This document shows, piece after piece, positions 6,645-21,874 of a stretch of 61,829 nt of DNA. Below the pieces are notes generated by a model. The model saw only the letters and a program-made list of their open reading frames with translations, had not been told where the DNA came from and did no database searches. A program made the position numbers and the translations under genes. The stretch covers positions 1-61,829 of the forward strand of contig OMZR01000002.1 of NCBI GenBank assembly GCA_900315575.1, in the 5' to 3' direction. Numbering within the stretch: position 1 is the first letter of the stretch; the number at the start of each line of letters is the position of its first letter. This stretch comes from an uncultured Veillonellaceae bacterium. Its GTDB lineage: Bacteria > Bacillota > Negativicutes > Selenomonadales > Selenomonadaceae.

Positions 6645-9347
6645 TCACGCGTGCGCCTGAAGGAATTCTTCGAACTCCTGCCGCGGCATCGGGCGGCCGT
6701 AGAGGTAGCCCTGGCCGTATTCGCAGCCGCAGTCCATCAGGAGGTCTTCCTGGGCTTCGGTCTCGATGCCTTCGCAGATGACTTCCATGCCGAGCATGTG
6801 GCCGAGCTCGACCATTTTCTTCAGAACGGCGCGCATGCGCTCGGAGCCTTCGGAGGCCAGCAGCAGCGAGCGGTCAATCTTCATGACGTCGAGCGGCAGG
6901 TAGTTCAGCAGCGAAAGGTCGCTGTAGCCGCTGCCGAAGTCGTCCATGTCGATCTTGAAGCCGAGGCCATGCAGGGCGGCGACGACGGCGATGGAATGCT
7001 CGCGCTGCTCGGCACCTGTGAAGGCGAACGCCGTCTCCGTGAGCTCGAGCTCGATGCCGTCCGTCGTATATTTCCCGACGAGCGCGCTCATCTTGCGCAG
7101 GTATCCCTGCTCCTGCATGTGGATGCGGCTCTGGTTGACGGAGATCGGCACGACGGGCAGGCCCTTCGCGCGGCAGTCGCGCTGGAACTGCATGACGTGC
7201 TCGAGGTTATAGAAATCGAGGTTTGAGATGAAGCCGTTGCTCTCGAAGAGCGCGATGAACTTGCCCGGCGGCAAAAAGCCGAGTTCTTCGCTGCGCCAGC
7301 GCACGAGCGCTTCGGCGCCGATACAGCGCTTCGTGATGAGGTCGTATTTCGGCTGGTACCAGATTTCAAATTCCTCGCGCCCGAGCGCGACTTCCTGCAG
7401 GCTCTCCATACGGCTCGTCAAATGCGCTTCGGCGAGCATCTTGTCGTCGTAGACGAGGACGTCCTTCGCCTCGTGCATGGCGAAATCAGCGCGCGCCATC
7501 GCCTCAGAGGCTTTGAGCATCTGCATGCCGTCCGGCATTTTGCCAGCGATGGGCGAAATGCCAGCCGTCAGCGGCACGTGCACAAGCATGCCGCCGACCG
7601 TCGCGAACTCATAGCGCTTGAACGTGACATGCAGCTGCGATTTCAGCGCGGCGAGGTCTTCCGTCTTCGCGAGGAAGACGACTTCGCCGACGCTGCCATG
7701 CGTTGCGACGCGGCGCACCCAATCGGCTTTGGCGAGGACATCGGCGAGGTGCTGCAGGAACGAGATGAGCGTATCGCGCCCATACGTGCTGATGAAGATG
7801 TCCGTGCGCTGGACGCCGATGACGACGACGGAGAGTTTCGGCGCTTCCTCCGGCAGCGCGGCGACGAGCGCATCGGCCTCGCGCAGGAACCAGCTGCGGT
7901 TCGGCTGGTTCGTCGCGCGATCCTCGTCGAGCAGTGCCTGCATTTCGCTGATGTGCGCACGACGCGAGAGGATGTAGTGCGTGACGAACAGGAAGATGAG
8001 GATCAGCGTGACGACGGCGCCGATCATGAAGTATTGCGGGTAAGCATAGAAGACGGAGCGCAGCGAGCGCTCGTTCTCCATGCGCTTGTCATGGCGCGCG
8101 GCGACGTTCGTGATGGTTTCCGGGCCGAGATAGGCGATTTCCTTGTCGAGCACGGTCAGGAGCTCCATCGGCACATCCTCGCGGACACCTGAAGCCATCT
8201 CGAGCGAGAACGCGACCGTGCCGTCCGTCACGAGGTCGGGGAAATCGCCCTGATAGATATTGTACTGCGCAGCTTCCTGCCGCAGGAACGTGACGTCGGC
8301 CTCGCCGTTTTCCACGGCTTTCAGGCAGTCGACGACGGTCGGATAGATGCGGATCTGGTCATCGTCGTAGCGCCGGCGCAGCACGCGGTCCGTCGTGCGG
8401 TTGTCGACGGACGCGACGATGGGATGCTCGCCTGCGCCTTTGCGGCGCGTGACGGCCGTATAGTTGCTGACGTAGAACGGCGCCGTGAGCCAGAGGCCGC
8501 GGTCTTCCGCCCAGCCGAGATCCCAGCCGATGTCGAGGAGCACCTGCGCGCGGCCGCTCTGGAGCTCTTTATCAGCCGCATCGAAATCAGGCACGGGAAT
8601 AATGCTCACTTTGACGCCGAGATCCTGCTCGATGCGGTCGACGAAGACGCGCAGCGTCCCCTGGAATGTGCCGTCATCATCGACGTAGGCAAACGGATGC
8701 TCACGCGCGACGACGACGATGGGGATGACGGGATGAAGTTTCAGATAACTCTGTTCCTCAGGCGTCAGCCGCAGGCCGAAGCGGCGGCCGTGCTCGGCAT
8801 AGACCTGCTCGAGCGTCGTCAGGAAGCCGGGGCGGTTCTCCGTCAGGCGGTCGGCCGCGACGTCGAGCTTGTGCAGCAAAGCTTCATTGCCCGGCCGCAC
8901 AGCGAAGTAGAGCGGGTGCGCATGGTAGTCCGGCGCCTGCGGCAAAGGCGGCGTGCCTTCCGGCGTCCGCTGCCAGCCGACAGGCAGGCGCGAGAAGACG
9001 AGGCCCTGCATGTCCGGCCCGCCCGGCATGACGCCGAGCACGACGTCGATCGTGCCCGCCATGAGACGCGTGCGGCAGCCTTCCCACGTATCCGGCACGA
9101 ACGTGATTTCCATGCCCGCATAGTTCGCGATGGCCTGCATGTAGTCCGTCTCGCGGCTGTAGAAATTGCCAGAGCCATCCTGCACGCGCTCCGTCGCTTC
9201 TTTCGCCATGCCGGTATCGCCGAGCGTATGGACGCCGACGCGCAGCATGGAACGGGCGTAGGCAGACGGGGCGGAAGCCATCATCTGCGCCATAATGGCA
9301 AATGCAAGCAACACAGGCAATAGCCAGCATTTTTTCCAAACGTTCAT
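6645..9347 (-). CDS. Membrane c-di-GMP phosphodiesterase with two periplasmic substrate-binding domains (EAL copy 1)
   Basis: The predicted role is hydrolysis of cyclic-di-GMP under control of a periplasmic ligand. The 900 residues contain a signal peptide (1-32), two tandem SBP_bac_3-type domains (about 34-190 and 205-430), one membrane helix (about 440-462), a GGDEF-like domain and an EAL domain (about 650-890). The GGDEF motif is lost (HGSVGEVVF), so cyclase activity is unlikely. The EAL residues are all present: GAEALVRW, SVNQSR, ELELTETAF, DMDDFGSGYSD, MKIDRS and CEGIETEAQ. The start ATG 9347 is chosen because it begins the signal peptide and has AAGGGG upstream. It is the first of four tandem paralogues; the ligand is unknown but is probably amino-acid-like. 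Confidence 0.93.
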   Translation of the reverse strand: MNVWKKCWLLPVLLAFAIMAQMMASAPSAYARSMLRVGVHTLGDTGMAKEATERVQDGSGNFYSRETDYMQAIANYAGMEITFVPDTWEGCRTRLMAGTIDVVLGVMPGGPDMQGLVFSRLPVGWQRTPEGTPPLPQAPDYHAHPLYFAVRPGNEALLHKLDVAADRLTENRPGFLTTLEQVYAEHGRRFGLRLTPEEQSYLKLHPVIPIVVVAREHPFAYVDDDGTFQGTLRVFVDRIEQDLGVKVSIIPVPDFDAADKELQSGRAQVLLDIGWDLGWAEDRGLWLTAPFYVSNYTAVTRRKGAGEHPIVASVDNRTTDRVLRRRYDDDQIRIYPTVVDCLKAVENGEADVTFLRQEAAQYNIYQGDFPDLVTDGTVAFSLEMASGVREDVPMELLTVLDKEIAYLGPETITNVAARHDKRMENERSLRSVFYAYPQYFMIGAVVTLILIFLFVTHYILSRRAHISEMQALLDEDRATNQPNRSWFLREADALVAALPEEAPKLSVVVIGVQRTDIFISTYGRDTLISFLQHLADVLAKADWVRRVATHGSVGEVVFLAKTEDLAALKSQLHVTFKRYEFATVGGMLVHVPLTAGISPIAGKMPDGMQMLKASEAMARADFAMHEAKDVLVYDDKMLAEAHLTSRMESLQEVALGREEFEIWYQPKYDLITKRCIGAEALVRWRSEELGFLPPGKFIALFESNGFISNLDFYNLEHVMQFQRDCRAKGLPVVPISVNQSRIHMQEQGYLRKMSALVGKYTTDGIELELTETAFAFTGAEQREHSIAVVAALHGLGFKIDMDDFGSGYSDLSLLNYLPLDVMKIDRSLLLASEGSERMRAVLKKMVELGHMLGMEVICEGIETEAQEDLLMDCGCEYGQGYLYGRPMPRQEFEEFLQAHA

Positions 9348-9415
9348 GACGACCCCTTCTTCTCTGATGGCGTGACAAGACTTTAGATACGACATAAAAA
9401 TTTGTTTGGCTATCG

Positions 9416-9474
9416 CATCCTACTACTCCCCCTGCCACTTCGTGGCCCTCCCCCCTCAATGAGGGGGGCTGACT
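9416..9474. repeat. Dispersed palindromic repeat, copy 3
   Basis: CATCCTACTACTCCCCCTG, then a CCACTTCGTGG hairpin and a CCCCCCTC-AATGAGGGGGG hairpin. It separates EAL copies 1 and 2. Confidence 0.75.
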
Positions 9475-9485
9475 CTTAAAAGTCT

Positions 9486-10857
9486 TTATGCATGCTGCCG
9501 GAGGAATGTTTCAAACTCGGCGCGCGGCATGGGCTTGCCGTAGAGGTAGCCCTGCCCGTACTCGCAGCCGCAGCGGCGCAGGAGGTTTTCCTGCGCCTCC
9601 GTCTCGATGCCTTCGCAGATGACCTTCATGCCGAGCGCGTGGCCGAGATCAATCATCTGCTGCAGCACGATGCACATGCGCTCCGAGCCTTCGGATGCGA
9701 GCAGGAGCGACCGGTCGATCTTCATGACGTCGAGCGGCAGCTGGTTCAGCAGCGAGAGGTCGCTGTAGCCGCTGCCGAAATCGTCCATGTCGATGGCAAA
9801 GCCCATGGCATGGAGCGCGGCGACGACGGCGACCGAATGCTCGCGGAGGGCGTGATCGGCGAAGTCAAATGCGGTCTCCGTGAGCTCGAGTTCGATGCCC
9901 TGCGTCGTGTAGCGGTCGATGAGCCCCTGCATGCGCGCGAGATAGCCCTGCTCGCGCATGTGGACGCGGCTCTGGTTCACGGAAATCGGCACGACGGGCA
10001 AGCCATTTTCCGCCGCTTCGCGCTGGAACATCATGACCTGCTCGAGATTGTAGAAATCGAGGTCGGAGATGAAGCCGTTGCTCTCGAAGAGCGCGATGAA
10101 CTTGCCAGGCGGCAGAAAGCCGAGCTCGGCGCTCTGCCAGCGCACGAGTGCCTCGGCACCGATGCAGCGCCGCGTCCGGAGATCGTATTTCGGCTGATAC
10201 CAGACCTGGAATTCCTGCCGTTCGAGCGCCTGCCGCTGGAGGCTTTCCATACGCGTCGTGAGCACGGTCTCCTGCTGGAGGCTCCCGGAAAAGAACTGCA
10301 CGGTCTCTTCGCCATGTGCGGCGATGTCGGCGTCATTGATGGCCGCGCGGATGTCTTTTGGCGGCTCGCCGAGGTAGCAGATGCCTGCCTTGAGCGGCAC
10401 GCGCACGAGCATGCTGCCGACTTCGAGATATTCATTGGCGCGCAGGAGGCCAGCGAGGCGGACGCTGAGCTCGTCGCGCGTCACGGGATGCGTGAGGCAG
10501 AGGATCTGCATGTGCGCCTCGTTCTCGCGCCGCATGGCGCGATACCGCCAGAACGCGAAGATGGAGACGAACGCGATGGCAAAGATGGCGAGCACGACAT
10601 ACTGCGGATACGAATAGAAGCGCCTGCAAGCTCGCCGTTTTCATCGAGATAGGCATACGGCCGCTCATTTGCAACGACGAGCACGCTCAGTTTTCCATGC
10701 GTGCGCAGATAGACGCGTTCCTCGCGGTCAAGCAAGAGTGGCGGCCGCTCGCCCTCTTCCTCGCGCTGGTGCAGGATGTCGGAGATGACGGTCGGCCGCG
10801 CGAGTGCCAGCTGATCCTGCGCGCGCTCGAGACGCGCGAGCAGTGCCTCGTTCCCCT
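9486..10857 (-). pseudogene. EAL copy 2, truncated and internally deleted pseudogene
   Basis: This is a paralogue of the gene at 6645-9347 with three lesions. Its signal peptide and first binding domain are missing: homology begins at GNEALLARLERAQDQ near 10857, next to the defence island. Near 10620 the frame jumps from PYAYLDENGELAG of the second binding domain to SYPQYVVLAIF, just before the membrane helix. This deletes most of that domain and shifts the frame. About 95 residues of the GGDEF-like domain are also lost in frame. The reading frame 9486-10595 still encodes a membrane helix and a complete EAL domain (GAEALVRW, DMDDFGSGYSD, MKIDRS, CEGIETEAQ). A short membrane phosphodiesterase could therefore still be made if it is translated. 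Confidence 0.88.
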
Positions 10858-10942
10858 TTTATATTAAATACGATGAACGAGGACGATTTTCCTGCTTCTT
10901 TTGAAAGCTCACGCAAAAAAAGCCTCTCCCGTGCATCAAAAA

Positions 10943-10979
10943 TGCGGCAGCCCGCCAAAATTTCTGACAGGTTGCCGCG
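10943..10979 (-). terminator. Rho-independent terminator of the restriction-modification operon
   Basis: Minus strand GCGGCA (10973-10978) pairs with TGCCGC (10944-10949) and is followed by ATTTTT. It lies 17 nt after the stop codon of the large restriction gene. Confidence 0.65.
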
Positions 10980-10995
10980 TTTGCTATGAAGAATC

Positions 10996-13900
10996 TTATA
11001 TTTGATTGTCACCGAACTGTTCCTGCACAACCTCGTCGAGCTTGCCATGCTTCACGTACTCCATGACATCGAGATCGACAAAATTCCGCTGCGAGATGTT
11101 TTGCGCAGCCTTGTCGAATCCGAAGATGTAGGCGATGGCGATGCTGTAGATGATGTGGCTCGGAGCGAAGCCGTAGACTTGGTGCTCGAGGATGTGGCGG
11201 AGACGCGCGGCGTCATCGGGATAGGCGGCTTTGAGGCCGTCGCTCTTGTAGAGGCGCTTGACGATTTCCGTGATGTAGAGGCCGGACTTCATGTAGAAAT
11301 CAACGAAGGTCTTCTCGGGATCATCAAAGATGCCGGGGTTCTCGGCTTCAAGCGCGTCGACCATCTGCGTGACGACGTTCTTCGGCGTGAAAATCTGGTT
11401 CGTCTTCTGCGGCGGGATGTAGTCGAAGATGTCTTCGTCCTGAGATTCGTCGAAGTAGTCGGCGAGGCGTTCCTTCAGCCGCAAAAATTCTTGGATGGAT
11501 TCGTCGAACACGACCTCGTTGAAGAGGTGGCCGTCGAAATGCTTCCGCTCGCCGGTCTCGGGATCGTCGTAGTCGCCACCGTCGCGCAGGAAACGGAACT
11601 CCGGCTCCGTGATGCCCGTGACCTCGGCGAAGACGTCATCCGGCGTGTAGTCGTCGAAATTCGCGAGCCGCAGGTCTTTGCCGCCGCCGTGCGCCATCTC
11701 GCTATATGCCATGATGAAGCTCGGGATCGTGCGGGAGAAGCCGCGCAGATGCGCGCGGATGTCGTCTTCGACGCCCTTCTTTTTCTTCGCTTCCTGCTGG
11801 CGCTCCAATTCCTCGACGACGGTCTGCTGCGCTTCCTCGAACTTCTTCGTCGCCGTCTCCTGCAAATCCTTTTGGAACGCCTCGGTCGCCTGCTGGATCT
11901 TCGCCTGCACGTCCTCGTTGAGCTTCTGGACTTCCGCCTCGCTCGTCGCCTGCTGCACCTGCTCCTCGTGCTCGGCAAGGATGATTTTTTTCGCCTGCTC
12001 GTGGTCTTCCGCGAGGTGCTGGAACGCTGTCTTGATGTCCTTCTCGACGCGCGTGCTGATCTGCTGCGCCTTGCCTTTCGTGAGGCCGTACGCTTCCTTG
12101 ATGTCCGTGTCGATCGTCGGCTGGAGGTTCGTCACGAGCGTATCGGCGACGGCCTCGGCGACCTTCATCGTCTGAGGAGAATCAAAGGCATCTTCCTTCG
12201 CTGCCGCGTCGATGAGACCTTGCGTCTCTTGCGCGACATCATCGTAGATCTTCTTGCCGAAAAATCCCTCGGATTTCTGGATGACGAGTTCGTTCGGCAC
12301 GTCCACGTCGCCGTTTTCGTCGACGGAGACATCTTCCGCGTCGTTCATCGTGAGGTCGTTCTTCTTGTCGGCTTGCTCCTCGGCGGGCGTGAGCTTTTCG
12401 AGCACGTCGCGCACGGCGGCCGGCGCGGAGAAGATGTTGCCGATGTTCTGGAACAAGAAATTGCTCATGAAGCCGCGCCGGATGACCTCTTTCGCCTTGA
12501 TCGTGCGCGGGATCGTCAGCACCTTCGCCGCATCGAGCTCGACCATCTTGCCCTCGTCGTCCTCAGCGATGACAGGGAAGAAATTCAGCAGCCGCTTGAT
12601 ATGCTCCTCATGCTCCTCCTTCGTCCCGCCGCCGTTTGCCGTCGTCGCATTCAGATTGTTTGCGAAGTCGTCGAAAATCATCAGCGTCCGCTCCGGCGCG
12701 AAGTCGAAGACGTAGGCGTTCTCCTTCTGATAGAGCTTGCCGTCCTCCTCGTATTCGTAAGGGTTCTGCGCGCGGAACGCGGCCTGCATGTACTCGGCGG
12801 GGCTCTTCATGTTCGACAGGATGAAGACCGCCGTCCACGGCTTCACCGTGACGCCCGTCGTGAGCTGCCCAACGGACAGCGTGATCGTGCGGTCGTGGTG
12901 CGCGATGGCATCGAGCACCTTGTCATAGCTCTTCTTGTTTTCCGTGTCATCCGATTCATCGAGCCGTCCGTCGCCCGCCGCGATCACGACCTCGTACTGC
13001 TCGAATACGGGATGCCGTTTCAGCAGCTTCGCCATCGCTTTCACGCTGTCCACGCGGTTAAAAAGCCAGAACGTATGGCGTAGCTCGTTTCGCAGCTCCG
13101 GCGTGCTGAACGGGAATTTTTCGTTCGTCGTCAGCGTATCGAGGAATTTTTCGACATCCTTCTCATAGACGAAGCGCCCTTTGTCGACGCGGAAAAATTC
13201 ATTGAGGTCGAACGCATACTCCGCGTGCTCGTCCTCCGACAGGTCGAGCCCCTTCGCGAGCGTGTCTCGGATCATGTTCGAAAGCTGGTACGTGAACATA
13301 TTGAGGCGCGGCAGCTTTTCGTAGGGGTTCGTGCCCTGCGTAGCCTTCCAGGTCGCTTTCGCCTCCTGCTCGTCCTCGTACGACCAGTTGAAAATCTGCT
13401 CGGGGCGGAACTTGCTGCTCGCAATGGCCTTGAACGGCGTGCCGGAGAGGTGCAGCGTGAACTTGCGCTTGATATTGTCAAACGCCTTGTCCGTCTTGTA
13501 CGTATCGACGCCCTCGTGCGCCTCGTCGATGACGAGGAGATCCCAGTCGGTCTCGGCGATCCATTTGAGCTTCTTGTAGTTGCCGCCAAAATAAATCGAG
13601 CCCTTGAGCCCCTGCAAACTCTCGAACGCGATGAGGCCGGCGCGGTCGATCTCGTCGTCTGCGAGTTTGTCGATATGGTCTTGGTAGGCCGCATAGGAAA
13701 GGACGGGCTGGTCGGCGAGCGCGTCCGTCTCGCTGACGAAGAGGTAGCCCGTCTGCCAGCGGATGAACTGCGCGAAGTCCTGATACCACGAGTTCGCGAT
13801 GCTCGGACGGTTCGTGACGATGAGCACGCGCGCCGCGTCGATGCGCCGCGCGAAGTCGTACGTCGTCAGCGTCTTGCCGAAACGCGGCTTCGCATTCCAG

Positions 13901-14382
13901 AGGAAGGAACGCGCGTCGTCGGTGTAGTCGTCCTTGTGCGCTGCGTAATAGGCCGCCGTCTGCTCCACGGCGCGCTGCTGCTCGGCGCGCAGCACATACG
14001 GGGTGTGCGCCGCGCTGTCCTGCACGTCGCTCGCGTCGCGGTCGCGGAAGTGGTAAAAATAGTTCTTCGACGTCTTGCCGTCGATATGAAACCACTCCGT
14101 CTGCGGCCGCCGCTCGACATGCTTCGCGACGGTCAGATAATCGTGGAACTCGTAATCGGTGAAATACGCGCCGGACCCGTCCGTGTATCGCGCTTCGGAA
14201 GACCATTCGAGATGCGGCTCGACGTCCACGGTATGCGTCTGCTGCCAGATGCGATCTTTCACGCTCTGCTTCGCTGTATAACCGATCTTCGTCCAGCCGT
14301 CATGCGCGGGGACGCCCGGCGTCGTGTAGGCGTAGATCATCGGGACGATTTTGGAGAACGGCTGAATTTTCATGTTGTCCAT
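10996..14382 (-). CDS. Restriction enzyme: T5orf172/GIY-YIG-like nuclease, SF2 helicase and methylase-like C-terminus
   Basis: This is a 1128-residue predicted restriction subunit. The N-terminus (about 15-110) resembles T5orf172/GIY-YIG nucleases, with IYAYTTPG and then GWTKIGYT. The helicase core has Walker A AKPRFGKTL (164-172), DEAH (286-289), SGTPFKA and LTTGVTVKPW. A long glutamate/lysine/glutamine-rich helical region follows (about 700-870). The last 150 residues resemble the front half of an N6-adenine methylase (NQIFTPKNVVTQMVDALE, FVDFYMKSGLYITEI). However, the SAM loop is poorly conserved and no NPPY follows. The gene begins 3 nt after the upstream methylase gene. Assignment to a named R-M type is uncertain; DNA cleavage with ATP-driven translocation is the likely role. 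Confidence 0.8.
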   Translation of the reverse strand: MDNMKIQPFSKIVPMIYAYTTPGVPAHDGWTKIGYTAKQSVKDRIWQQTHTVDVEPHLEWSSEARYTDGSGAYFTDYEFHDYLTVAKHVERRPQTEWFHIDGKTSKNYFYHFRDRDASDVQDSAAHTPYVLRAEQQRAVEQTAAYYAAHKDDYTDDARSFLWNAKPRFGKTLTTYDFARRIDAARVLIVTNRPSIANSWYQDFAQFIRWQTGYLFVSETDALADQPVLSYAAYQDHIDKLADDEIDRAGLIAFESLQGLKGSIYFGGNYKKLKWIAETDWDLLVIDEAHEGVDTYKTDKAFDNIKRKFTLHLSGTPFKAIASSKFRPEQIFNWSYEDEQEAKATWKATQGTNPYEKLPRLNMFTYQLSNMIRDTLAKGLDLSEDEHAEYAFDLNEFFRVDKGRFVYEKDVEKFLDTLTTNEKFPFSTPELRNELRHTFWLFNRVDSVKAMAKLLKRHPVFEQYEVVIAAGDGRLDESDDTENKKSYDKVLDAIAHHDRTITLSVGQLTTGVTVKPWTAVFILSNMKSPAEYMQAAFRAQNPYEYEEDGKLYQKENAYVFDFAPERTLMIFDDFANNLNATTANGGGTKEEHEEHIKRLLNFFPVIAEDDEGKMVELDAAKVLTIPRTIKAKEVIRRGFMSNFLFQNIGNIFSAPAAVRDVLEKLTPAEEQADKKNDLTMNDAEDVSVDENGDVDVPNELVIQKSEGFFGKKIYDDVAQETQGLIDAAAKEDAFDSPQTMKVAEAVADTLVTNLQPTIDTDIKEAYGLTKGKAQQISTRVEKDIKTAFQHLAEDHEQAKKIILAEHEEQVQQATSEAEVQKLNEDVQAKIQQATEAFQKDLQETATKKFEEAQQTVVEELERQQEAKKKKGVEDDIRAHLRGFSRTIPSFIMAYSEMAHGGGKDLRLANFDDYTPDDVFAEVTGITEPEFRFLRDGGDYDDPETGERKHFDGHLFNEVVFDESIQEFLRLKERLADYFDESQDEDIFDYIPPQKTNQIFTPKNVVTQMVDALEAENPGIFDDPEKTFVDFYMKSGLYITEIVKRLYKSDGLKAAYPDDAARLRHILEHQVYGFAPSHIIYSIAIAYIFGFDKAAQNISQRNFVDLDVMEYVKHGKLDEVVQEQFGDNQI

Positions 14383-14385
14383 GCC

Positions 14386-15465
14386 TTAGTCCTCCTCTCC
14401 GTGGCGTTGTGATTTCACACGTTGCTCGATATAGTCAATGTCTTCTTGCGAGAGCTCGAACATTTTGTAAAGTTGCGCATCAATGTCTTGCGAAAAGTTG
14501 ATGAATTTGTTGTTCGCAGTATAATCGCCAATGTCCGGCACACGTTTGCCAAGCGACGTCAACGATTCATCCGTCATCAAGAACGTATAACGAATGAGAT
14601 AGGATTTTGCGTATTTGAAGAAGTTCTGCGCTTCGGCTTTCGTCCGGAATGACTTCAACGCAACACGCGAACGCCCGAACGCAGAATGGTCGTCGATGAT
14701 TTCCATCTGGTTATCACGCTTCTGCCCGCCTGCGTTCGCGCTGGAGACAGCAACTTGCCATTGACGAATGTATTCGCGATTCGAGTCAATGACATCATTG
14801 TTCGCCAAGAACCATTTCGCACGTCCCTTCTTGCCCGCTTGGTCGTTCGTCAAGAGCCGAATCATGCCATCAGGAACAGGCGTTTTCTTCGAGCACGGCT
14901 TCACCTTGTCGGGATTTTCTTCAACGAAGTTGCTTTCGATATGGAACAACGTGCGAGGCAGGATAGCATCGTGAAGATATGCGAGCGGCAACCGTTTGAC
15001 AACGCAATCAATCTTCCCGCAGACAACTTGGTCGATTGGATTGAGAAGAAAGAGCTCATCGCCTGGATTCGGCACTTCGACCATCTTCTCAGTGCCCTTC
15101 GACATATAATGATAGCGGAAGCCCTTCGTGTTCTTGGCCTTGTCCTTGATAACGATAGAAATTCCATCAGCCATCTGAACCGTAGGAAAGACTTCGCTGG
15201 CATCGGGATAAAAGTACAAGTCGGCAAGATGCTTGTCGTTGATTTGATCGAGCCCGAACTTCTTCAGTCCCTTCCCAAATTGATGTATCCATCTCCCCCC
15301 CGGGTATATAAGTACCGTGGTATTAGACACATCATCTGCTCCCTCTTGGAAGAACTGAAAAATATTTTTGACGGGTTTCTGCTTATTTTGTACAGCTTCT
15401 TCTTCCGTTGTCTCTTCCTGATATGGTGGATTCCCGATAGCGACATCAAATTTGAATTTTCCCAT
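14386..15465 (-). CDS. N6-adenine methylase, C-terminal half with NPPY motif and target recognition (Eco57I-like)
   Basis: This 359-residue protein opens directly with MGKFKFDVAIGNPPYQ, that is, with catalytic motif IV (NPPY) of an N6-adenine DNA methylase. It lacks motifs X and I to III, which are in the upstream gene at 15471. The remainder resembles the Eco57I-type methylase tail plus a target-recognition region. The two products most likely assemble into one active methylase. The start ATG 15465 lies 5 nt after the preceding stop, with AAGGAG inside the end of the preceding gene. Base composition is visibly more AT-rich than in the flanking genes, consistent with transfer. Confidence 0.8.
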   Translation of the reverse strand: MGKFKFDVAIGNPPYQEETTEEEAVQNKQKPVKNIFQFFQEGADDVSNTTVLIYPGGRWIHQFGKGLKKFGLDQINDKHLADLYFYPDASEVFPTVQMADGISIVIKDKAKNTKGFRYHYMSKGTEKMVEVPNPGDELFLLNPIDQVVCGKIDCVVKRLPLAYLHDAILPRTLFHIESNFVEENPDKVKPCSKKTPVPDGMIRLLTNDQAGKKGRAKWFLANNDVIDSNREYIRQWQVAVSSANAGGQKRDNQMEIIDDHSAFGRSRVALKSFRTKAEAQNFFKYAKSYLIRYTFLMTDESLTSLGKRVPDIGDYTANNKFINFSQDIDAQLYKMFELSQEDIDYIEQRVKSQRHGEED

Positions 15466-15470
15466 TGAAT

Positions 15471-16175
15471 TTAGCAGAGCTCCTTTCTCCAGACCTGCAT
15501 CAGATCTACTTCCTTGTAACGCGGCGCTGGTTCCTCCGGCTCCGCCGCTGCGAAGAGATCGCCCTCGACGACCATCTCCTCATCGTGGAACATCGAATCG
15601 TACGTGAACGGCACGCGAAGAACTTTGTGGCGGTGCTTCGGATTCTGCCGCCACTCGCTGAACTCGATGAGCTCGCCTGCCGCATCCTTGTGCGTCAGCG
15701 TGTTCCCCTGCACGATGTTCGCTGCAATCACCGTCTCCACCGAGCGCAGGAGATCGGCATCCGTGTCGAGCGCGCGCCCCGTCTTTTCCTCGTAGCACTC
15801 CGCGAAGACGAGCAGCATATTCTCTCGCGCCTCGTTCAAATTGTCCGGCAGAAGCTCGATGCCGTAGATGCTCATGAGCGCCCAGAGCGCTTCATACTTC
15901 CAGTTGCTCCCGCGAATGTTCTTCGCCGCGCTGACGTGCGCGAGCTTCTGACGCAGGATTTCCATAAGGAACGCTCCCACGCCCGCCGATGGCTCGAAGA
16001 ACGTCGCATGGACATCCGCGAGCTTCTCCTGGATCGGCGGATTCGACAGCATCAGCTTCACCATCCAATTCGGCGTGAAGACCTCACCATGCTTTTGCAC
16101 GCGCTCTTTCGACTTGATCAGTCGCTCGCGCAGTGTCTCACCTTCCGCCGCAACATTTTCCTGTTTGTTTTCCAA
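15471..16175 (-). CDS. N6-adenine methylase, N-terminal half with SAM-binding motif
   Basis: About 234 residues carry the front part of an N6-adenine methylase: motif X region HGEVFTPNWMVKLML, motif I FFEPSAGVGAFLMEIL for SAM binding, and IYGIELLPDNLNEAREN (motif II/III). The reading frame ends before any NPPY, which opens the next gene. The start is placed at TTG 16175 because GGAGG lies 7 nt upstream. A longer frame from GTG 16223 would start inside the brnTA terminator hairpin. It is the first gene of the R-M operon, downstream of brnA. Whether this is a natural two-subunit methylase or an old split is not decided by the sequence. Confidence 0.8.
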   Translation of the reverse strand: MENKQENVAAEGETLRERLIKSKERVQKHGEVFTPNWMVKLMLSNPPIQEKLADVHATFFEPSAGVGAFLMEILRQKLAHVSAAKNIRGSNWKYEALWALMSIYGIELLPDNLNEARENMLLVFAECYEEKTGRALDTDADLLRSVETVIAANIVQGNTLTHKDAAGELIEFSEWRQNPKHRHKVLRVPFTYDSMFHDEEMVVEGDLFAAAEPEEPAPRYKEVDLMQVWRKELC

Positions 16176-16202
16176 CCTCTTGCCTCCGTCCCTTACAAAC
16201 AG

Positions 16203-16241
16203 AAAACGCAGCTCCTCTCGCACAAACGAAAAAAGCTGCGC
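16203..16241 (-). terminator. Terminator after brnA
   Basis: Minus strand CGCAGC (16235-16240) pairs with GCTGCG (16207-16212) and is followed by TTTT. It separates the brnTA transcript from the R-M operon. Confidence 0.55.
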
Positions 16242-16252
16242 TCTTCCATTGA

Positions 16253-16567
16253 TTACAGGCAGTCCTTGAGCAATTCCGGATGATCGATTGCCTTGACGAT
16301 CAGACGGCGCAACACGCCCGTGTAGCCCGCACCAAGCATTTTTTTCGCCTTGTCAATCGTCTGCTGTGGGATGCGGATCGTGAGGTTGCTTTTCCGCATG
16401 GAGGCGCGCTGGCTGCGCGCTATCGCCGCTACTTTTTTCAATTCCTCATCCGTGAGCGGCGGAATGTCATCATAATTAATCGGTAATTTGGAAGCTCGCT
16501 CCAAATCCGCAAGTTCTGCGGCCGTCGGTTTCTGTCCCTCATAAACAATCGCTTCATGAATTGCCAT
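16253..16567 (-). CDS. brnA: BrnA-family antitoxin
   Basis: This 104-residue antitoxin of a type II toxin-antitoxin pair neutralises BrnT and, in the known family, represses the operon by DNA binding. The C-terminal part carries the family signature (LTIRIPQQTIDKAKKML and then GYTGVLRRLI), a ribbon-helix-helix-like DNA-binding region. The N-terminal part (PPLTDEELKKVAAIARSQRA) is the expected toxin-wrapping segment. The start ATG 16567 has AAAGGAG upstream and lies inside the 3' end of brnT (14-nt overlap), so translation is coupled. Confidence 0.9.
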   Translation of the reverse strand: MAIHEAIVYEGQKPTAAELADLERASKLPINYDDIPPLTDEELKKVAAIARSQRASMRKSNLTIRIPQQTIDKAKKMLGAGYTGVLRRLIVKAIDHPELLKDCL

Positions 16568-16847
16568 CGTAATACGCTCTCCTTTCTTTCGCGGTCGCAT
16601 ACCGAGCAGAAATCAATCGCACCGCATCGCCACGTTCTGTGTAAACAACAAAAACAATATTGTTGATCATTCCCAGCACCTTGTACCGATCTTCATCGTC
16701 GCTATGTTCTTCGTCAAACCATTCGATACGATATGGATCAGCAAAAACGAGGCGGGCTTCTTCCAAGGTAAATCCGTGCTTTTTCTTATTAAGCTCATTC
16801 TTTTCGTCGTCCCATTGAACGCGACGGCCTAAAAATTCTACTTCCAT
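16554..16847 (-). CDS. brnT: BrnT-family toxin (predicted ribonuclease)
   Basis: This 97-residue toxin of the RelE-like BrnT family cleaves RNA and arrests growth when free. The family pattern is clear: VQWDDEKNELNKKKHGFTLE, then VFADPYRIEWFDEEH, DRYKVLGMINNIVFVVYTER and VRLISARYATAKERRAYY. It precedes the antitoxin, as usual for brnTA. The start codon follows a strong promoter so closely that the transcript would be leaderless or nearly so, and no Shine-Dalgarno is visible. It sits between EAL pseudogene 3 and the R-M operon. Confidence 0.92.
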   Translation of the reverse strand: MEVEFLGRRVQWDDEKNELNKKKHGFTLEEARLVFADPYRIEWFDEEHSDDEDRYKVLGMINNIVFVVYTERGDAVRLISARYATAKERRAYYDGNS

Positions 16848-16853
16848 ATTCTC

Positions 16854-16893
16854 ATTATACCTTCAATGGCACGCAGGTGCAATACATATTGCA
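16854..16893 (-). promoter_or_regulatory. brnTA promoter with palindromic operator
   Basis: On the minus strand TTGCAC (16877-16882), a 17-nt spacer and TATAAT (16854-16859) form a near-ideal promoter. The -10 ends 6 nt before the brnT ATG. The palindrome TGCAATacatATTGCA (16878-16893) covers the -35 and is a plausible BrnA operator. Confidence 0.7.
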
Positions 16894-16906
16894 TTGCCAT
16901 TTTCTT

Positions 16907-18897
16907 TCAGAGATGCGCAGCGAGGAATGCTTCGAATTCTTCCTGCGGCATGGGCTTGCCGTAGAGGTAGCCCTGTCCGTGCTCGCAGCCGCAATCGATG
17001 AGCATCTGCTCCTGTTCTTCCGTCTCGATGCCTTCGCAGATGACGGTCATGCCGAGCGCGTGGCCGAGGTCGGTCATTCGCGCGAGCACGGAGCGCATGC
17101 GCCCGGAGTTCTCACTCGCAAGCAGCAGCGACCGGTCGAGCTTCATGACATCGAGCGGCAGCGCGTCGAGCAGCGTCATGTCGCTGTAGCCCGTGCCGAA
17201 GTCATCCATGTCGATGCGGAAGCCGAGCCGCTTGAGCTCCGTGACGACGGCGAGCGCGTTCTCGCGCTGCTCGCGGCCCGCGAGGTCGAACGCCGTCTCC
17301 GTGAGCTCGAGCTCGACGCCGTCCGTCGAGTAGATGCCGACGAGCTCCTTCATGCGCTGGAGGTAGCCCTTCTCCTGCATATGGAAGCGGCTCTGGTTCA
17401 CGGAGATGGGAACGACGGGCAATCCTTGCGCGTGGCGTCCCTGCTGCAGCTTCATGACGTGGACGAGGTTGTAGAAATCGAGCTTCGTGATGAAGCCATT
17501 GCGCTCGAAGATTTTGCGGCGTTCCTCGGGCGGGAAACCGACAGCCGCGATGCCCGCATGGATGGGCACATGGACGTTCATGTCGCCGACGCGGACGTAT
17601 TCCTGCACTTCTTTCTGATGATGGACGGCCTCGATGAGGATGCCCTCGTCTTTCGCCTGCGCGAGGCAGAACACATGGCCGGCGCTCGCATGGGACGCGC
17701 ATGCCTTTGCCCACGAGACCTCGCTGAGCTCGGCCGTGAAGCGGCGGATCATGTCACTCACGACCTGCTGGCCATACGTGCCGACGATGGCATCGAGGTT
17801 CGCGATGCCGAAGACGAAGCGGATAGGCGTAGATGAGCGAGCGGATGCTGCGGTGGCGCGCCGTGCTGCCTTGCTGCTGCAAAAGATTGCTCTGAGAGAC
17901 GTTCGGGGCAATCACATTGATTTCTTTGTCGAGAATCGGCAGAAGATGTTCCGAGACGCGCTCGGAAACGCCGATGGAATTCCGCTGCAAAAAAGCGACC
18001 GTACCATCGGAAACGAGGTCGGGGAAATCGCCCTGCCAGATGGCGTACTGCGCCGTCTCCTGGCGCACGAACGTGATGTCAGCCTCGCCGGACTGTACGG
18101 CCCGCAGGCAGGCTTCGACATCAGGATAGATGCGGATCTGGTCGTCGGCGTAGCGCGTGCGCAGCATGCGGTCGGTCATGCGGCTGTCGACCGCTGCGAT
18201 GACGGGATGCGTCAGATCGCTGAAACGGCGCGTGACGGTTGTATAGTAGTCCGTCGCATAGCTGATGGTCGCGGCCATGCCCTTTGATTCCGCAAAGGCG
18301 ATATCCCAGTCGATGTTCAGGTACAGGTCGGCACTGCCGTCCGCGATGGCGGCCTCGGCCTCCACATACGACGGGACAGTCCGGATGTCGATGGTGACGC
18401 CGAGGTCTTCTGCAATGCGGTCAGTTCGCGGCCATGGCGTCATTCGCCCGCTCGATGCGGCCGAAGAGCGCATCGTTCCCCTGCCGCATGACATAATAGA
18501 GCGGCGTGACCTGATGGTCGGGAACCGGGAGCTGAACCTTGCGGTTGCCGCGCGCAAAATCAATGGGCATGCGCGAGTACAGGAGCTCGCCCCGGTACTC
18601 CGGCAGCTGCGGGACGCCCGCGATGGCGTCAATCTCGCCCGTGCGCAGGCGCGCGAGATTTTCCTCCCAGCTGCCGGGCACGAACGCGACATCCATGCCC
18701 GCATAGCTCGTGAGCGTCTGCATGTAGTCCGTCTCGATGCCGTAGTAGTTGCCTGCCGCATCGACGGTGATGACGCCGTCACCGAGCGGCCGGATGCCGA
18801 CGCGCAGCGTGTCGCGCGCCTCAGCGAAAGGTGAAAGGGCAGCGAACAGTGACAGGCATAACAAGAGCAGTGCCATTTTCTGCAAAAAATTCTTCAT
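16907..18897 (-). pseudogene. EAL copy 3, multiply deleted pseudogene
   Basis: This is a paralogue of the 6645-9347 gene. It begins at ATG 18897 with a signal peptide and an intact first binding domain (LRVGIRPLGD, IETDYMQTLTSYAGMD). Near 18421 a deletion and frameshift join NDAMAAN to RTDRIAEDLGV of the second binding domain. Near 17823 another joins SIRSLIYAYP to RFVFGIANLDA, removing the membrane helix. Near 17510 an in-frame deletion joins the GGDEF-like domain to NGFITKLDFYNL, removing the YQPKYDL and GAEALVRW segment with the essential EAL glutamate. The C-terminal EAL motifs (DMDDFGTGYSD, MKLDRS, CEGIETEEQ) remain. No active phosphodiesterase can be expected. Confidence 0.88.
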
Positions 18898-18916
18898 ATG
18901 AACACCACTGCCTTTC

Positions 18917-19007
18917 TTCGACTGCACAATCGATGGACGATTCACGCCCTACCTTCGACACTCCCCCAGTCAGCTTCGCTGACAGCCCCCTCTGGGAGGG
19001 TGCCTGA
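18917..19007. repeat. Dispersed palindromic repeat, copy 4 (long form)
   Basis: It has the TTCGACTGCACAATCGAT block, CCTACCTTCGACACTCCC, then a GTCAGCTTCGCTGAC hairpin and CCCTCTGGGAGGG. It lies between EAL copies 3 and 4. Confidence 0.8.
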
Positions 19008-19021
19008 GTGCGATATCTTCT

Positions 19022-21874
19022 TCATGCATGCGCCCGCAAGAAATTTTCGTAGTCCGCACGCCGCATGGGCTTTCCATAGAGGAAGCCCTGCCCGTACTCG
19101 CAGCCGCAGGCGATGAGCAGCTGTTCCTGTTCCTCCGTCTCGATGCCCTCGCAGATGACCTTCATGCCGAGCGCGTGGCCGAGCTCGATCATCTGCCGCA
19201 GGACGGTCTGCATGCGCTCCGAGCCCTCGGACTCGAGCAGCAGGTCGATCTTCATGACATCGAGCGGCAGCTGGTTGAGCAGCGAGAGGTCGCTGTAGCC
19301 GCTGCCGAAGTCGTCCATGTCGATGGAAAAGCCCATGCCATGAAGAGATTTCACGACGTCGAGCGAATGCGTGCGCAACGCCTCGCCGAGCACGTCAAAC
19401 GCCGTCTCCGTGAGTTCGAGCTCGATGCCGTCCGTCGAGTAGATGTCGACGAGCTCCTGCACATGCTGGAGATAGCCTTCCTCGCGCATGTGCTGGCGCG
19501 ACTGGTTGACGGAAATCGGCAGCACGGGCAGTCCCCTCATTTTTGCCTCGCGCTGGAACACCATGACGTGTTCGAGATTATAGAAGTCAAGCTGCGTGAT
19601 AAAGCCGTTGCTCTCGAAAAGAGGAATGAATTTCCCCGGCGGCAGGAAGCCGAGCTCCTTGCTCTCCCAGCGCACGAGCGCCTCGGCGCCCACGCACCGC
19701 TTCGTCTTGAGGTCGTACTTCGGCTGGTACCAGATATGGAACTCGCGCGCCGCGAGCGCCTGCTCCTGCAAGCTTTCCATGCGGCTCACAAGCAGCGTCT
19801 CACGCTGCAGAGCGCTCGAGAAGACCGTGACGGGGCCGACTTCGTGCGCGGCGAGCGCGGCGTTGTTCATCGCCGTCTTGAGGTCGATGCGCGGGGCGCC
19901 GAGGTAGCAGATGCCCGCTTCGAGCGGGATGCGCACGAGCATGCGGCCGACCTGCTGCGACTCATTCTGCCGCAGGATCAGGGAGAGGGCCGAGACGAGC
20001 TTCTTTTCCTCCGCGCAGGCGAGCAGGAAAACCTCCGCCGCGCTCGCGCGCGTGCCGAGGAAATGCGTCCACGAGCTGCCCTCGAATGCGCCCGCGAGGC
20101 GCTTGCAGAGTTCGGCGAGCGCCTCGCGGCCATACGTGCCCGCGATGATGTCCGGGCGCATGGCGCGGATGGCGACGGCGGCAAATGGTGCGCCTTTCGG
20201 CGTCGCCGTGAGCGCCTTCTCGCCCTCGCGTTCGAGCCAGCTGAGGTTGTGCAGGCCCGTATCGGGATCGCTGTCGATGATGGACTGCAGGTGCGCGGCA
20301 TTCTTCTTCTTCATGCGGCGGTAGCGGTAGAACGCCGCCCCAGCGAAGAGAAAGATCACGAGCGCGCCCAAGAGGAAATACTGCGGATAATTGAAGAAGT
20401 ACGACGAGAGCGAGCGGCTGTCAAACAGTTTCTGCCGCTCTTCGGCAACAGCCGCCGCCGCAACATCCTGCCCCATGTGAGCAATCTCTTTGTCGAGAAT
20501 GGAGAGCAGCGCCGTATCCGCCTCCTGTGGCAGGACAATGGCCGTGCGGACGGAAAATGCGACCGTGCCGCTCGCAACAAGATTCGGGAACTTTCCCACC
20601 AGCGTCTGGTACTGCGCGACTTCCTGCCGCAGAAACGCAACGTCGGCTTCACCGTTCTCGACGGCACGCAGGCAGGCGTCCGATGAATCATAGCGCAAGA
20701 GCTTTTCCGTGCCAAAGCGTGGCGCAAGGAATGCCTCCGCGAAGCGCGAATTGTAATAAGCGACGCGCGGACGCGGCGGACGGCCCGCCCGACGCGTGAC
20801 TTCCGTGAAATACGACGTCGTGAAAGGCGCCGTCTGCATGTAGCCATGCTCGCCCGCCCAGCTGGGGCTCCAACGCGAATTGAGCAGCACGTCTGCCGAG
20901 CCGTCCGCAAGGTGCGCATACGCCTCTTCTGCCGAACGAACCGGCAGGATTTCAACGTCGATGCCGAGGTCCGCTCCAATGCGGTCCGTCACAGCGCGCA
21001 AGCCGCCCGCGAAATTTCCATTCTCATCGAGATAGGCATACGGCTGCCCGCTCACGACGACCGCCGCACGCAGCGTCGGATGCTCCAGGAGATAGTCGCG
21101 TTCGCGGCGATCGAGCAGGAGCGGTGCGCCTGCGCCATTCGAATGGTAGAGATCATAGAGGTCGGCAAAGAGCATCGGACGCGTCGTCGCAAGGCGTGCG
21201 GCCGCCTGGTTCAGGCGGTCGAGAAGCTCCGTATTGCCCTTCCGCACGACGAAATAGACGGGGTCGGTCTCAAGCGCGGCCGCTGGCAGCAAGTCTTCCG
21301 GCAGCTGCGTGTCGAGCGAGCAGCCGTCAATGACGCCAGCATCATAGGCCGCGAGGATGTGCTTGCGATCCTCGAACTCCTGCGTCTTATAGGAAAAGCC
21401 CTCGAAATCCAGAACCGCGCCGAGCCGCGGGCTCGTATACTGGTTCCGGATGATGCCGATCGTGAGTGGCCGCGTGCGGTCGGGGTTGTCAAACGTCGCC
21501 ACACCGCCGCGCAGATAGAGCATCGACGTCGAGAGACTCATCGGGATGCGTCCATAGTCGAAGATGGCATGGCGCTCCGGCAGGTCTGTGATGTTCGCGA
21601 TGGCATCGATTTCTCCAGATGCGAGTTTCGCGAGATTGTTCGACCACGAATCCGAGACAAAGACGGCCTGCATGCCTGCATAGCTTGCGAGCATGCGCAT
21701 GTAGTCCTGATTCTGGTCGCGGCTGCCATCCAGCGGCGACTTGAGCGACGGCAGCGTGTTGATGCCGACGCGCAGCGGCTGCCGCTCCTCCGCCGCGCCG
21801 ACACTCGCACAGAGAAAAACGGCGCCCGCGAGAACGAGCGCCGCTGTTTTTTGATAGAACTGCTTCATCTTCAT
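19022..21874 (-). CDS. Membrane c-di-GMP phosphodiesterase with two periplasmic binding domains (EAL copy 4)
   Basis: This 950-residue full-length paralogue of copy 1 has a signal peptide (1-28), two SBP_bac_3-like domains (about 33-260 and 270-490), a membrane helix (about 515-535), a degenerate GGDEF domain (ASAAEVFLLA where GGDEF should be) and an EAL domain (about 690-945). EAL motifs are GAEALVRW, SVNQSR, ELELTETAF, DMDDFGSGYSD and CEGIETEEQ. The conserved MKIDRSLLLASEG of the other copies is shortened to MKIDLLLESEG, losing two residues just after the catalytic lysine loop. Activity may therefore be altered. The start ATG 21874 has AAAGGAG 7 nt upstream. The ligand is unknown. Confidence 0.92.
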   Translation of the reverse strand: MKMKQFYQKTAALVLAGAVFLCASVGAAEERQPLRVGINTLPSLKSPLDGSRDQNQDYMRMLASYAGMQAVFVSDSWSNNLAKLASGEIDAIANITDLPERHAIFDYGRIPMSLSTSMLYLRGGVATFDNPDRTRPLTIGIIRNQYTSPRLGAVLDFEGFSYKTQEFEDRKHILAAYDAGVIDGCSLDTQLPEDLLPAAALETDPVYFVVRKGNTELLDRLNQAAARLATTRPMLFADLYDLYHSNGAGAPLLLDRRERDYLLEHPTLRAAVVVSGQPYAYLDENGNFAGGLRAVTDRIGADLGIDVEILPVRSAEEAYAHLADGSADVLLNSRWSPSWAGEHGYMQTAPFTTSYFTEVTRRAGRPPRPRVAYYNSRFAEAFLAPRFGTEKLLRYDSSDACLRAVENGEADVAFLRQEVAQYQTLVGKFPNLVASGTVAFSVRTAIVLPQEADTALLSILDKEIAHMGQDVAAAAVAEERQKLFDSRSLSSYFFNYPQYFLLGALVIFLFAGAAFYRYRRMKKKNAAHLQSIIDSDPDTGLHNLSWLEREGEKALTATPKGAPFAAVAIRAMRPDIIAGTYGREALAELCKRLAGAFEGSSWTHFLGTRASAAEVFLLACAEEKKLVSALSLILRQNESQQVGRMLVRIPLEAGICYLGAPRIDLKTAMNNAALAAHEVGPVTVFSSALQRETLLVSRMESLQEQALAAREFHIWYQPKYDLKTKRCVGAEALVRWESKELGFLPPGKFIPLFESNGFITQLDFYNLEHVMVFQREAKMRGLPVLPISVNQSRQHMREEGYLQHVQELVDIYSTDGIELELTETAFDVLGEALRTHSLDVVKSLHGMGFSIDMDDFGSGYSDLSLLNQLPLDVMKIDLLLESEGSERMQTVLRQMIELGHALGMKVICEGIETEEQEQLLIACGCEYGQGFLYGKPMRRADYENFLRAHA

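What the first reader, a model, noticed from the sequence alone, without database searches (positions are those of the whole stretch)
10996..16175. Unusual R-M operon: adenine methylase split between motif III and NPPY, plus a nuclease-helicase with a vestigial methylase end
Gene A holds motif X and the SAM-binding loop (EPSAGVG); gene B begins with the catalytic NPPY. Neither alone can methylate. The third protein joins a T5orf172/GIY-YIG-like domain, a DEAH helicase and a C-terminal region resembling another methylase front half (IFTPKNVVTQM, FVDFYMKSGLY) without NPPY. That front half might in principle pair with gene B instead of gene A, giving two alternative methylase combinations. The exact system type is not recognised.
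Basis: partly seen in the sequence, partly recalled or inferred. Interest (0 to 1): 0.55.

Follow-up and report, generated by a model that had tools for sequence, protein, structure and literature searches.

The report
Split methylase with swappable specificity half
This is a bacterial DNA-defence operon whose protective enzyme comes in two halves, one of which looks exchangeable and also fits a disabled half-enzyme built into the DNA-cutting protein, so one part may set the target for both protection and attack.

Summary
Gene A (motifs X-III) and gene B (NPPY onward) are two halves of a gamma-class m6A methyltransferase. Gene C is a T5orf172/GIY-YIG-like nuclease-translocase ending in a second methylase front half (F2) without NPPY. 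The split is no sequencing error: dozens of relatives share it. The type is known: the DrdVI-like 'split methylase/RM' family, whose members DrdVI (GCAGCC) and MaeIV (GCACY) were cloned by others and make m6A. The window is a variant: in DrdVI F2 is fused to B, here it sits on the translocase. F2 is as conserved as the helicase but has K for the first SAM glycine (99 of 101) and no motif-II acid (0 of 101), so it is probably SAM-dead. In 111 complete loci there is one B for two front halves; B is fused to A in 51, to F2 in 18, free in 42. B is exchanged: in sister genome G176, A and C keep about 95% DNA identity while B protein identity is 25-29%. Favoured mechanism, inferred: B is a shared specificity half, pairing with A to methylate and with F2 to guide restriction.

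The parts
15471..16223 (-). Gene A: front half (motifs X, I, II, III) of a gamma-class N6-adenine methyltransferase; start either GTG 16223 or TTG 16175
   Evidence: A1 profile 400 bits (the profile includes this sequence)
16059..16088 (-). A motif X, GEVFTPNWMV
   Evidence: sequence
15969..16001 (-). A motif I (SAM loop), FFEPSAGVGAF; G-x-G kept in 32 of 32 A1-type sequences
15840..15869 (-). A motif II, IYGIELLPDN; acid in 32 of 32
15696..15722 (-). A motif III, ANIVQGNTL
   Evidence: sequence
14386..15465 (-). Gene B: back half, catalytic motif IV (NPPY) onward plus the presumed target-recognition part; the exchangeable module
15421..15432 (-). B motif IV, NPPY
14384..15404 (-). Stretch of B without any blastn match in the sister genome G176 although both flanks are about 95% identical: the exchanged cassette
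10996..14382 (-). Gene C: T5orf172-like nuclease, SF2 (ResIII) translocase, variable linker, pseudo-methylase front half F2
14053..14340 (-). C N-terminal T5orf172/GIY-YIG-like domain (approximate limits)
   Evidence: T5orf172 in 7 of 13 homologues, MUG113 in 4 of 13; window's own copy below threshold
13432..13995 (-). C ResIII helicase core match (aa 130-317)
11005..11517 (-). F2: conserved second methylase front half, SAM-binding residues replaced, no NPPY
11362..11394 (-). F2 motif X, IFTPKNVVTQM
11275..11307 (-). F2 motif I, FVDFYMKSGLY: K in 99 of 101 where A has the first SAM glycine
11146..11178 (-). F2 motif II, VYGFAPSHIIY: no acid at the motif-II position in 101 of 101

Best explanation
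The operon is a DrdVI-like split-methylase restriction-modification system in which B is a shared specificity half. A (SAM-binding front) plus B (NPPY catalytic back and target recognition) form the m6A writer. C is the ATP-driven translocase-nuclease; its end, F2, is a methylase front half that has lost SAM binding. B docks on F2 through the same face that A uses, making a SAM-dead copy of the methylase on C that recognises the same site when it is unmodified and licenses translocation and cutting. One B thus sets the target for writer and cutter, so exchanging B re-targets both at once. Shown here: anatomy, family, conservation of F2, replacement of its SAM residues, natural A::B and F2::B fusions, repeated exchange of B. 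Shown by others for relatives: m6A by the paired M1-M2 subunits.
For: (1) Parts. Of 137 loci scanned (window and several duplicates included; the profiles were built from some of them) 111 hold all of A, F2, B and helicase; B is fused to A in 51 (one of them, L091, carries F2 in the same chain), to F2 in 18, and free in 42 (my tally; a few genes are broken into two or more ORFs, and extra helicase scraps under 60 bits were ignored). (2) Both fusions join just before the NPPY strand. (3) AlphaFold models of natural fusions, F2::B (L169; pLDDT 72.8, pTM 0.73) and A1::B (part of L091; pLDDT 82.4, pTM 0.75), both align to M.TaqI from its residue 21 on: F2::B Z 18.1, rmsd 4.1, 326 aligned; A1::B Z 14.9, rmsd 5.8, 323 aligned. 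(4) F2 matches the A1 profile (hhalign probability 95.6%, score 58.7; 60 column-shuffled controls at most 21.3). (5) F2 keeps K-S-G (K 99/101, S 99/101, G 101/101) and no motif-II acid (0/101), while A1 has G-x-G in 32/32 and the acid in 32/32, and A2 the first G and the acid in 68/68 each. (6) F2 is not decaying: it follows helicase identity, Mantel rho 0.96 in A1-type loci. (7) B exchange: among 40 locus pairs (not independent of each other) with helicase identity of 90% or more, B is under 60% in 33, A in 0 and F2 in 0; the window against G176 shows breakpoints within about five codons after NPPYQ and at the C start. (8) Relatives: pDrdVI carries A, F2::B and helicase, its only methylase-type genes by annotation and by my profiles; M1-2.DrdVI was cloned and gives m6A at GCAGCC (PMC6430315, whole text); M1-2.MaeIV gives GCACY (PMC10113651, passages).
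Against: No binding or activity data for the window. In the commonest arrangement (A::B fused, F2 on C) B is tethered to A, so F2 would have to displace a covalently linked partner; in A|C::B and DrdVI, A would have to displace F2. A stable three-part complex without exchange would explain the same fusions. L091 puts F2, A and B in one chain. In DrdVI, on my assignment, the cloned pair includes F2 fused to B, so that experiment does not separate the roles of A and F2. On the helicase tree F2::B needs only one change of label, so it may be one ancestral state, not repeated fusion. F2x, the F2 of three A2|C::B loci, matches F2 only weakly (probability 15%, score 26.7; 60 shuffles at most 18.9). 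The F2::B model has low-confidence stretches (113-155, 164-169, 171-185) between F2 and NPPY, and rests on the DrdVI-type F2, not the window's. A2 itself has A instead of the second SAM glycine in 67 of 68, so an altered motif I alone does not prove loss of SAM binding. In A2-type loci B still follows the helicase weakly but significantly (rho 0.23, p at most 0.002).
Confidence: 0.5

Rival explanations
1. Stable three-part complex: A and B always form the methylase, and F2 is a dead half-domain that docks C onto a different surface of A:B, as the Res subunit docks on Mod. No partner exchange; modification or restriction is decided by the state of the site.
For: A::B fusion is the commonest arrangement (51 of 111) and arises repeatedly on the helicase tree (14 changes, at least 10 forced), natural if A:B is a permanent unit; one protein carries helicase::F2::A1::B (L091).
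Against: F2::B fusions have B directly behind F2 as in a normal methylase and one models as a gamma-methyltransferase fold; F2 stops where B begins, so it lacks the second half of its own fold unless B supplies it.
Confidence: 0.3
2. F2:B is a second, active methylase (two writers sharing B).
For: F2 keeps motif X and matches the A1 profile; the F2::B model has the methylase fold; the DrdVI pair that was cloned contains F2 on my assignment; A2 also has a non-canonical motif I.
Against: K in place of the first SAM glycine in 99 of 101 and no motif-II acid in 101 of 101; A is kept beside F2::B in 18 complete loci where F2:B would suffice; the MaeIV motif is modified on a single strand.
Confidence: 0.08
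3. F2 is a functionless relic of an ancestral single-chain methylase, and C finds its site by contacts elsewhere.
For: F2::B may be the ancestral order (one change on the tree).
Against: F2 is as conserved as the helicase (median 95-96% in pairs with helicase at or above 90%) also where B is no longer attached to it; its odd residues are nearly fixed.
Confidence: 0.07
4. The A/B break is a sequencing error or a recent frameshift in a dead operon.
For: A and B are in different frames only 5 nt apart.
Against: Separate A and B in 36 plain A|B|C loci and in same-genus genomes; intact motifs in all three genes; a ribosome-binding-like AAAGGAG before B.
Confidence: 0.02

Closest known systems
DrdVI (Deinococcus wulumuqiensis NEB 479, plasmid pDrdVI; M1-2.DrdVI, listed as Type IIG, GCAGCC)
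   Same: Front-half subunit (M1/A), NPPY-bearing subunit (M2), separate GIY-YIG translocase-nuclease; all match the window-family profiles (A1 E 3e-52, F2 1e-16, B 1e-70, helicase 6e-81). PMC6430315 read whole.
   Different: In DrdVI F2 is fused in front of B and the helicase protein lacks F2; in the window F2 is on the helicase and B stands alone. That M1=A and M2=F2::B is my assignment from the plasmid map and a passage of PMC4996451.
MaeIV (Methanococcus aeolicus; [quoted passage not shown]
   Same: Named by its authors as the same split family; m6A at GCACY after cloning of both subunits, motif modified on one strand (PMC10113651, passages).
   Different: Gene map not examined here; archaeal.
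Type ISP enzymes (LlaGI, LlaBIII)
   Same: Nuclease-translocase-linker-methylase-recognition order, seen in the C::B fusions of relatives (L061, L062); LlaGI is tied with CamA at the top of the fold list of the A1::B model (Z 17.2, rmsd 7.8, 379 aligned).
   Different: One chain with a complete methylase and an Mrr-like nuclease (PMC3874165, passages); here separate genes, T5orf172 nuclease, a probably SAM-dead cis front half and a trans front half.
OspHL35III-type Type IIG-like systems
   Same: GIY-YIG nuclease and translocase with a single recognition module (PMC4752239, passages).
   Different: Described there as three proteins: an MmeI-like methylase/specificity protein, a translocase and a GIY-YIG nuclease.
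Naturally split methylase M.AquI
   Same: Two subunits make one methylase (recalled, not read here).
   Different: Cytosine-C5 enzyme; no second front half on the nuclease (recalled).

Membership tests
DrdVI-like split methylase R-M | Front-half methylase subunit without NPPY | tested here: met
   Gene A: motifs X-III, no NPPY; DrdVI M1 matches the A1 profile, E 3e-52
DrdVI-like split methylase R-M | NPPY/recognition subunit of the same family | tested here: met
   Gene B; DrdVI M2 matches the B profile, E 1e-70; both hit PADLOC PDLC03375
DrdVI-like split methylase R-M | Separate GIY-YIG nuclease fused to a translocase | tested here: met
   Gene C ResIII; T5orf172 in 7 of 13 homologues; DrdVI helicase E 6e-81. 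The window's own nuclease domain is below Pfam threshold
DrdVI-like split methylase R-M | F2 fused N-terminal to B, as in DrdVI M2 | tested here: not met
   In the window F2 lies at the end of C. I treat fusion order as variable within the family, hence 'variant'; my reading, not a published definition
DrdVI-like split methylase R-M | m6A on one strand of an asymmetric site, needing both subunits | not testable with these tools
   Needs methylome data
Type ISP | Single polypeptide with complete methylase | tested here: not met
   Three genes; neither half complete
Type ISP | Mrr-like N-terminal nuclease | tested here: not met
   T5orf172 (7 of 13) or MUG113 (4 of 13) instead in homologues, no Mrr family listed
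Type III | Beta-class Mod (NPPY before the SAM motif) and Res | tested here: not met
   Motif order X-I-II-III then IV, i.e. gamma class
Type I | HsdS subunit with two recognition domains | tested here: not met
   No such Pfam match among A, B, C and the two genes upstream, the only proteins scanned for it
MmeI-like Type IIG | Nuclease, methylase and recognition domain in one chain | tested here: not met
   Separate genes and an added translocase

The most novel reading that the evidence does not exclude
A writer and a reader share half of one enzyme: the same B half-methylase is completed either by a live front (A) to write m6A or by a SAM-dead front carried by the motor-nuclease (F2) to read the unmodified site, perhaps with the conserved lysine of F2 filling the SAM pocket. 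Swapping this one half-domain changes modification and restriction specificity together.
Probability: 0.42. Interest if true: 0.8.

Novelty: new variant of a known kind. Interest (0 to 1): 0.55.

Why it matters
A restriction system whose modification and cutting arms have separate recognition domains cannot change target without a harmful mismatch. Sharing one recognition part solves this in Type I (HsdS) and MmeI-like enzymes (established knowledge). Here the shared, exchangeable part appears to be half of the catalytic domain itself, used by both a live and a dead front half. If true, it would be a new way to couple specificity, a natural pseudo-enzyme made from half a Rossmann fold, and a modular platform (constant A and C, variable B) for retargeting m6A and restriction. 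The family spans at least Bacillota, Bacteroidota, Actinomycetota, Pseudomonadota, Deinococcota, Spirochaetota and Myxococcota by the record titles seen.

Tried and rejected
Sequencing error between A and B: rejected by independent genomes. Close relatives of B in genome contigs with the single protein: none found; the alignment of C worked. Solved structures by sequence: none for A or B, and one weak match to a hypothetical protein for C (E 0.012). NCBIfam gave nothing above cut-off. Alignments A2 and A4, meant for a model of the F2::A1::B protein L091, were misaligned and not used for prediction; only its A1::B part was modelled. LlaFI as a possible characterised member: only seen in a table of Type III enzymes in PMC3874151 (passage), not followed.

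Incomplete loci: 26 of 137 lack at least one part; I looked closely at 8 of them. Five (L063, L107, L164, L172, L176) begin at the edge of the stretch held, within the operon. L153 is a C::B gene lacking its 5' part, with 5.7 kb of other genes upstream and no A. L136 (0.9 kb upstream, no A or B) and L077 (1.4 kb upstream of B, no A) are undecided. In the exchange test, duplicates (helicase and B both over 99%) and loci failing length filters were dropped: 18 A1-type, 67 A2-type and only 3 DrdVI-like loci stayed.

Print status: no paper found that describes the second front half or sharing of B; searches were made, in an open-licence library only.
Full report
What is there. On the minus strand of the window, genes A (16223-15471), B (15465-14386) and C (14382-10996) follow each other closely. 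A carries methylase motifs X, I, II and III and no NPPY; B starts with NPPY and matches the back part of the Eco57I family; C is a ResIII-type helicase with a T5orf172-like start (Pfam finds that domain in 7 of 13 homologues, not in the window's own copy) and a C-terminal stretch, F2, that again shows motif X, a motif-I-like loop and a motif-II-like strand, and stops before NPPY. The window lies in a 3.16-Mb genome of 221 contigs, 98.96% complete, with one match to B; its same-genus neighbour G176 appears in the named collection as an uncultured Selenomonas (L066 = L042).

The split is old and shared. I searched relatives by B in 189 genomes of the order (60 matched at E 1e-6, own genome included), by C in 398 genomes of the phylum (8 matched at E 1e-20, own included), in plasmids (83 records) and phages (5 records), and with an alignment of 13 C proteins in genome contigs and viral contigs (80 and 31 loci kept). 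I then mapped profiles for A1, A2, B, F2, F2x and helicase on 137 loci, window and a few duplicates included. A comes in two related forms (A1 as in the window; A2 with EITCGEAP; hhalign 99.6%).

Arrangements. Main classes: A2::B | C 49; A1 | B | C 18; A2 | B | C 18; A1 | F2::B | helicase 12 (DrdVI-like); A2 | helicase::F2x::B 3; A1 | C | B 2; A | C::B in two plasmids; and one protein with helicase::F2::A1::B (L091). In the 111 loci that hold all parts I count one A, one F2 and one B (some broken into two or more ORFs); B is joined to A in 51, to F2 in 18, free in 42. The other 26 lack a part; see Tried and rejected. A tree of 104 helicases (quick method, labels assigned by me) needs 14 changes for the A::B label, at least 10 forced by well-supported branches, but only one for F2::B. 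So F2::B may well be the ancestral order, with B later freed and repeatedly fused to A.

F2 is a conserved, probably SAM-dead front half. It matches the A1 profile (95.6%, score 58.7, against at most 21.3 in 60 column-shuffled controls; F2 against B 19.1) and the DrdVI-type F2 (99.2%); the F2x of three C::B loci matches only weakly (15%). In 101 F2 sequences the first SAM glycine is K in 99 and the motif-II acid is absent in all; in A1 both are kept in 32 of 32, and in A2 the first glycine and the acid in 68 of 68, although A2 has A for the second glycine in 67 of 68. DrdVI's own second subunit shows the same K-S-G. F2 follows helicase divergence closely, so it is under selection even where B is no longer attached. 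This argues against 'vestigial'.

Both fronts fit the same back. The model of a natural F2::B fusion (L169, 14 sequences, pLDDT 72.8, pTM 0.73) matches CamA best (Foldseek E 3.5e-15; Z 19.5, rmsd 4.5, 377 aligned) and M.TaqI (Z 18.1, rmsd 4.1, 326 aligned). The model of a natural A1::B fusion (part of L091, 19 sequences, pLDDT 82.4, pTM 0.75) matches LlaGI (Z 17.2, rmsd 7.8, 379 aligned), CamA, and M.TaqI (Z 14.9, rmsd 5.8, 323 aligned). Both alignments begin at M.TaqI residue 21, so each front appears to take the same slot before B. The listings give only first and last residues, a shared fold does not show function, and these are single-chain predictions.

B is exchanged. Window and G176: 95.4% DNA identity over 10900-14383 and 94.5% over 15405-16866, no match between; G175, whose contig ends inside C, shows 95.4% over 14210-14383 and 94.9% over 15416-16900 with the same gap. 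The breakpoints fall within about five codons after NPPYQ and at the C start; the three B proteins are 25-33% identical. Across loci, 33 of 40 pairs (not independent) with helicase identity of at least 90% have B under 60%, none has A or F2 under 60% (17 of 21 A1-type, 15 of 18 A2-type, 1 of 1 DrdVI-like). Mantel rho of helicase with A, F2 and B is 0.95, 0.96 and 0.24 in A1-type loci (the last with permutation p 0.08) and 0.40, 0.53 and 0.23 in A2-type loci (all at p 0.002, so B there is not wholly free of the rest). The window's B is closest to B of a viral contig with split A1 (L147, 60%) and of Bifidobacterium choerinum fused to A2 (L114, 57%), so related specificity halves occur with both A types and in two phyla.

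What is known. pDrdVI of Deinococcus wulumuqiensis NEB 479 has 15 listed genes (the plasmid gene table can be incomplete), of which two adjacent ones are methylase-like, followed by the helicase; they match the window-family profiles, and no other ORF of the plasmid did. The paper (whole text) lists M1-2.DrdVI, GCAGCC, 6mA, IIG, cloned and expressed in E. coli ER2796. [quoted passage not shown] PADLOC holds models for pieces of it under Type II/IIG names. So the kind is known; the arrangement with F2 on the translocase, the SAM-dead front half and the sharing of B are not described in what I could find (searches listed under Tried and rejected).

Mechanism and limits. I favour a shared-half model: A:B writes; F2:B on C reads. 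Steps shown are anatomy, family, conservation, fusions and exchange. The main rival is a stable complex in which F2 docks C on A:B. Sequence data alone cannot separate them; competition binding or a structure would.

Noticed in passing
window 16253-16847 (-): BrnT/BrnA toxin-antitoxin pair (Pfam BrnT E 5.6e-26; BrnA 0.0014, below cut-off) ends 29 bp before the GTG start of gene A and may share its transcript; 98-100% identical in G175 and G176 while B is replaced. No tblastn match in the other loci then held.
   Followed up: partly
window 6645-21874 (-): Paralogous periplasmic-binding (SBP_bac_3) plus EAL-domain proteins on both sides of the operon; the copies directly beside it (9486-10595 and 16907-18945) look truncated or broken.
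   Followed up: partly
L036:9376-9753, L041:8112-8564, L095:4413-4817, L110:5254-5658, L145:3357-4104: Toxin-antitoxin-type genes (PIN; HEPN with nucleotidyltransferase) nested between A and B or, in L110, between A::B and C; also GmrSD (L135:2963-4942), KilA-N (L098:4081-4974) and Bro-N (L081:3105-3971) genes between A and B. The gap may be an insertion hot spot; no control was made.
   Followed up: partly
L091:5965-10743: Single 1593-aa ORF with helicase, F2, A1 and B in one chain.
   Followed up: partly
L065:2624-4953: Bifidobacterium plasmid where an annotated IS256 transposase gene sits at the start of B; the B ORF has no NPPY.
   Followed up: no
L064 and L152: In the A|C|B form the F2 loop reads STAG instead of KSG; these fit the two exceptions among 101.
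   Followed up: no
L161, L163, L169, L173, L174: DrdVI-type F2 has a CxxC zinc-finger-like insert before NPPY in all five printed, absent from the window's F2.
   Followed up: no
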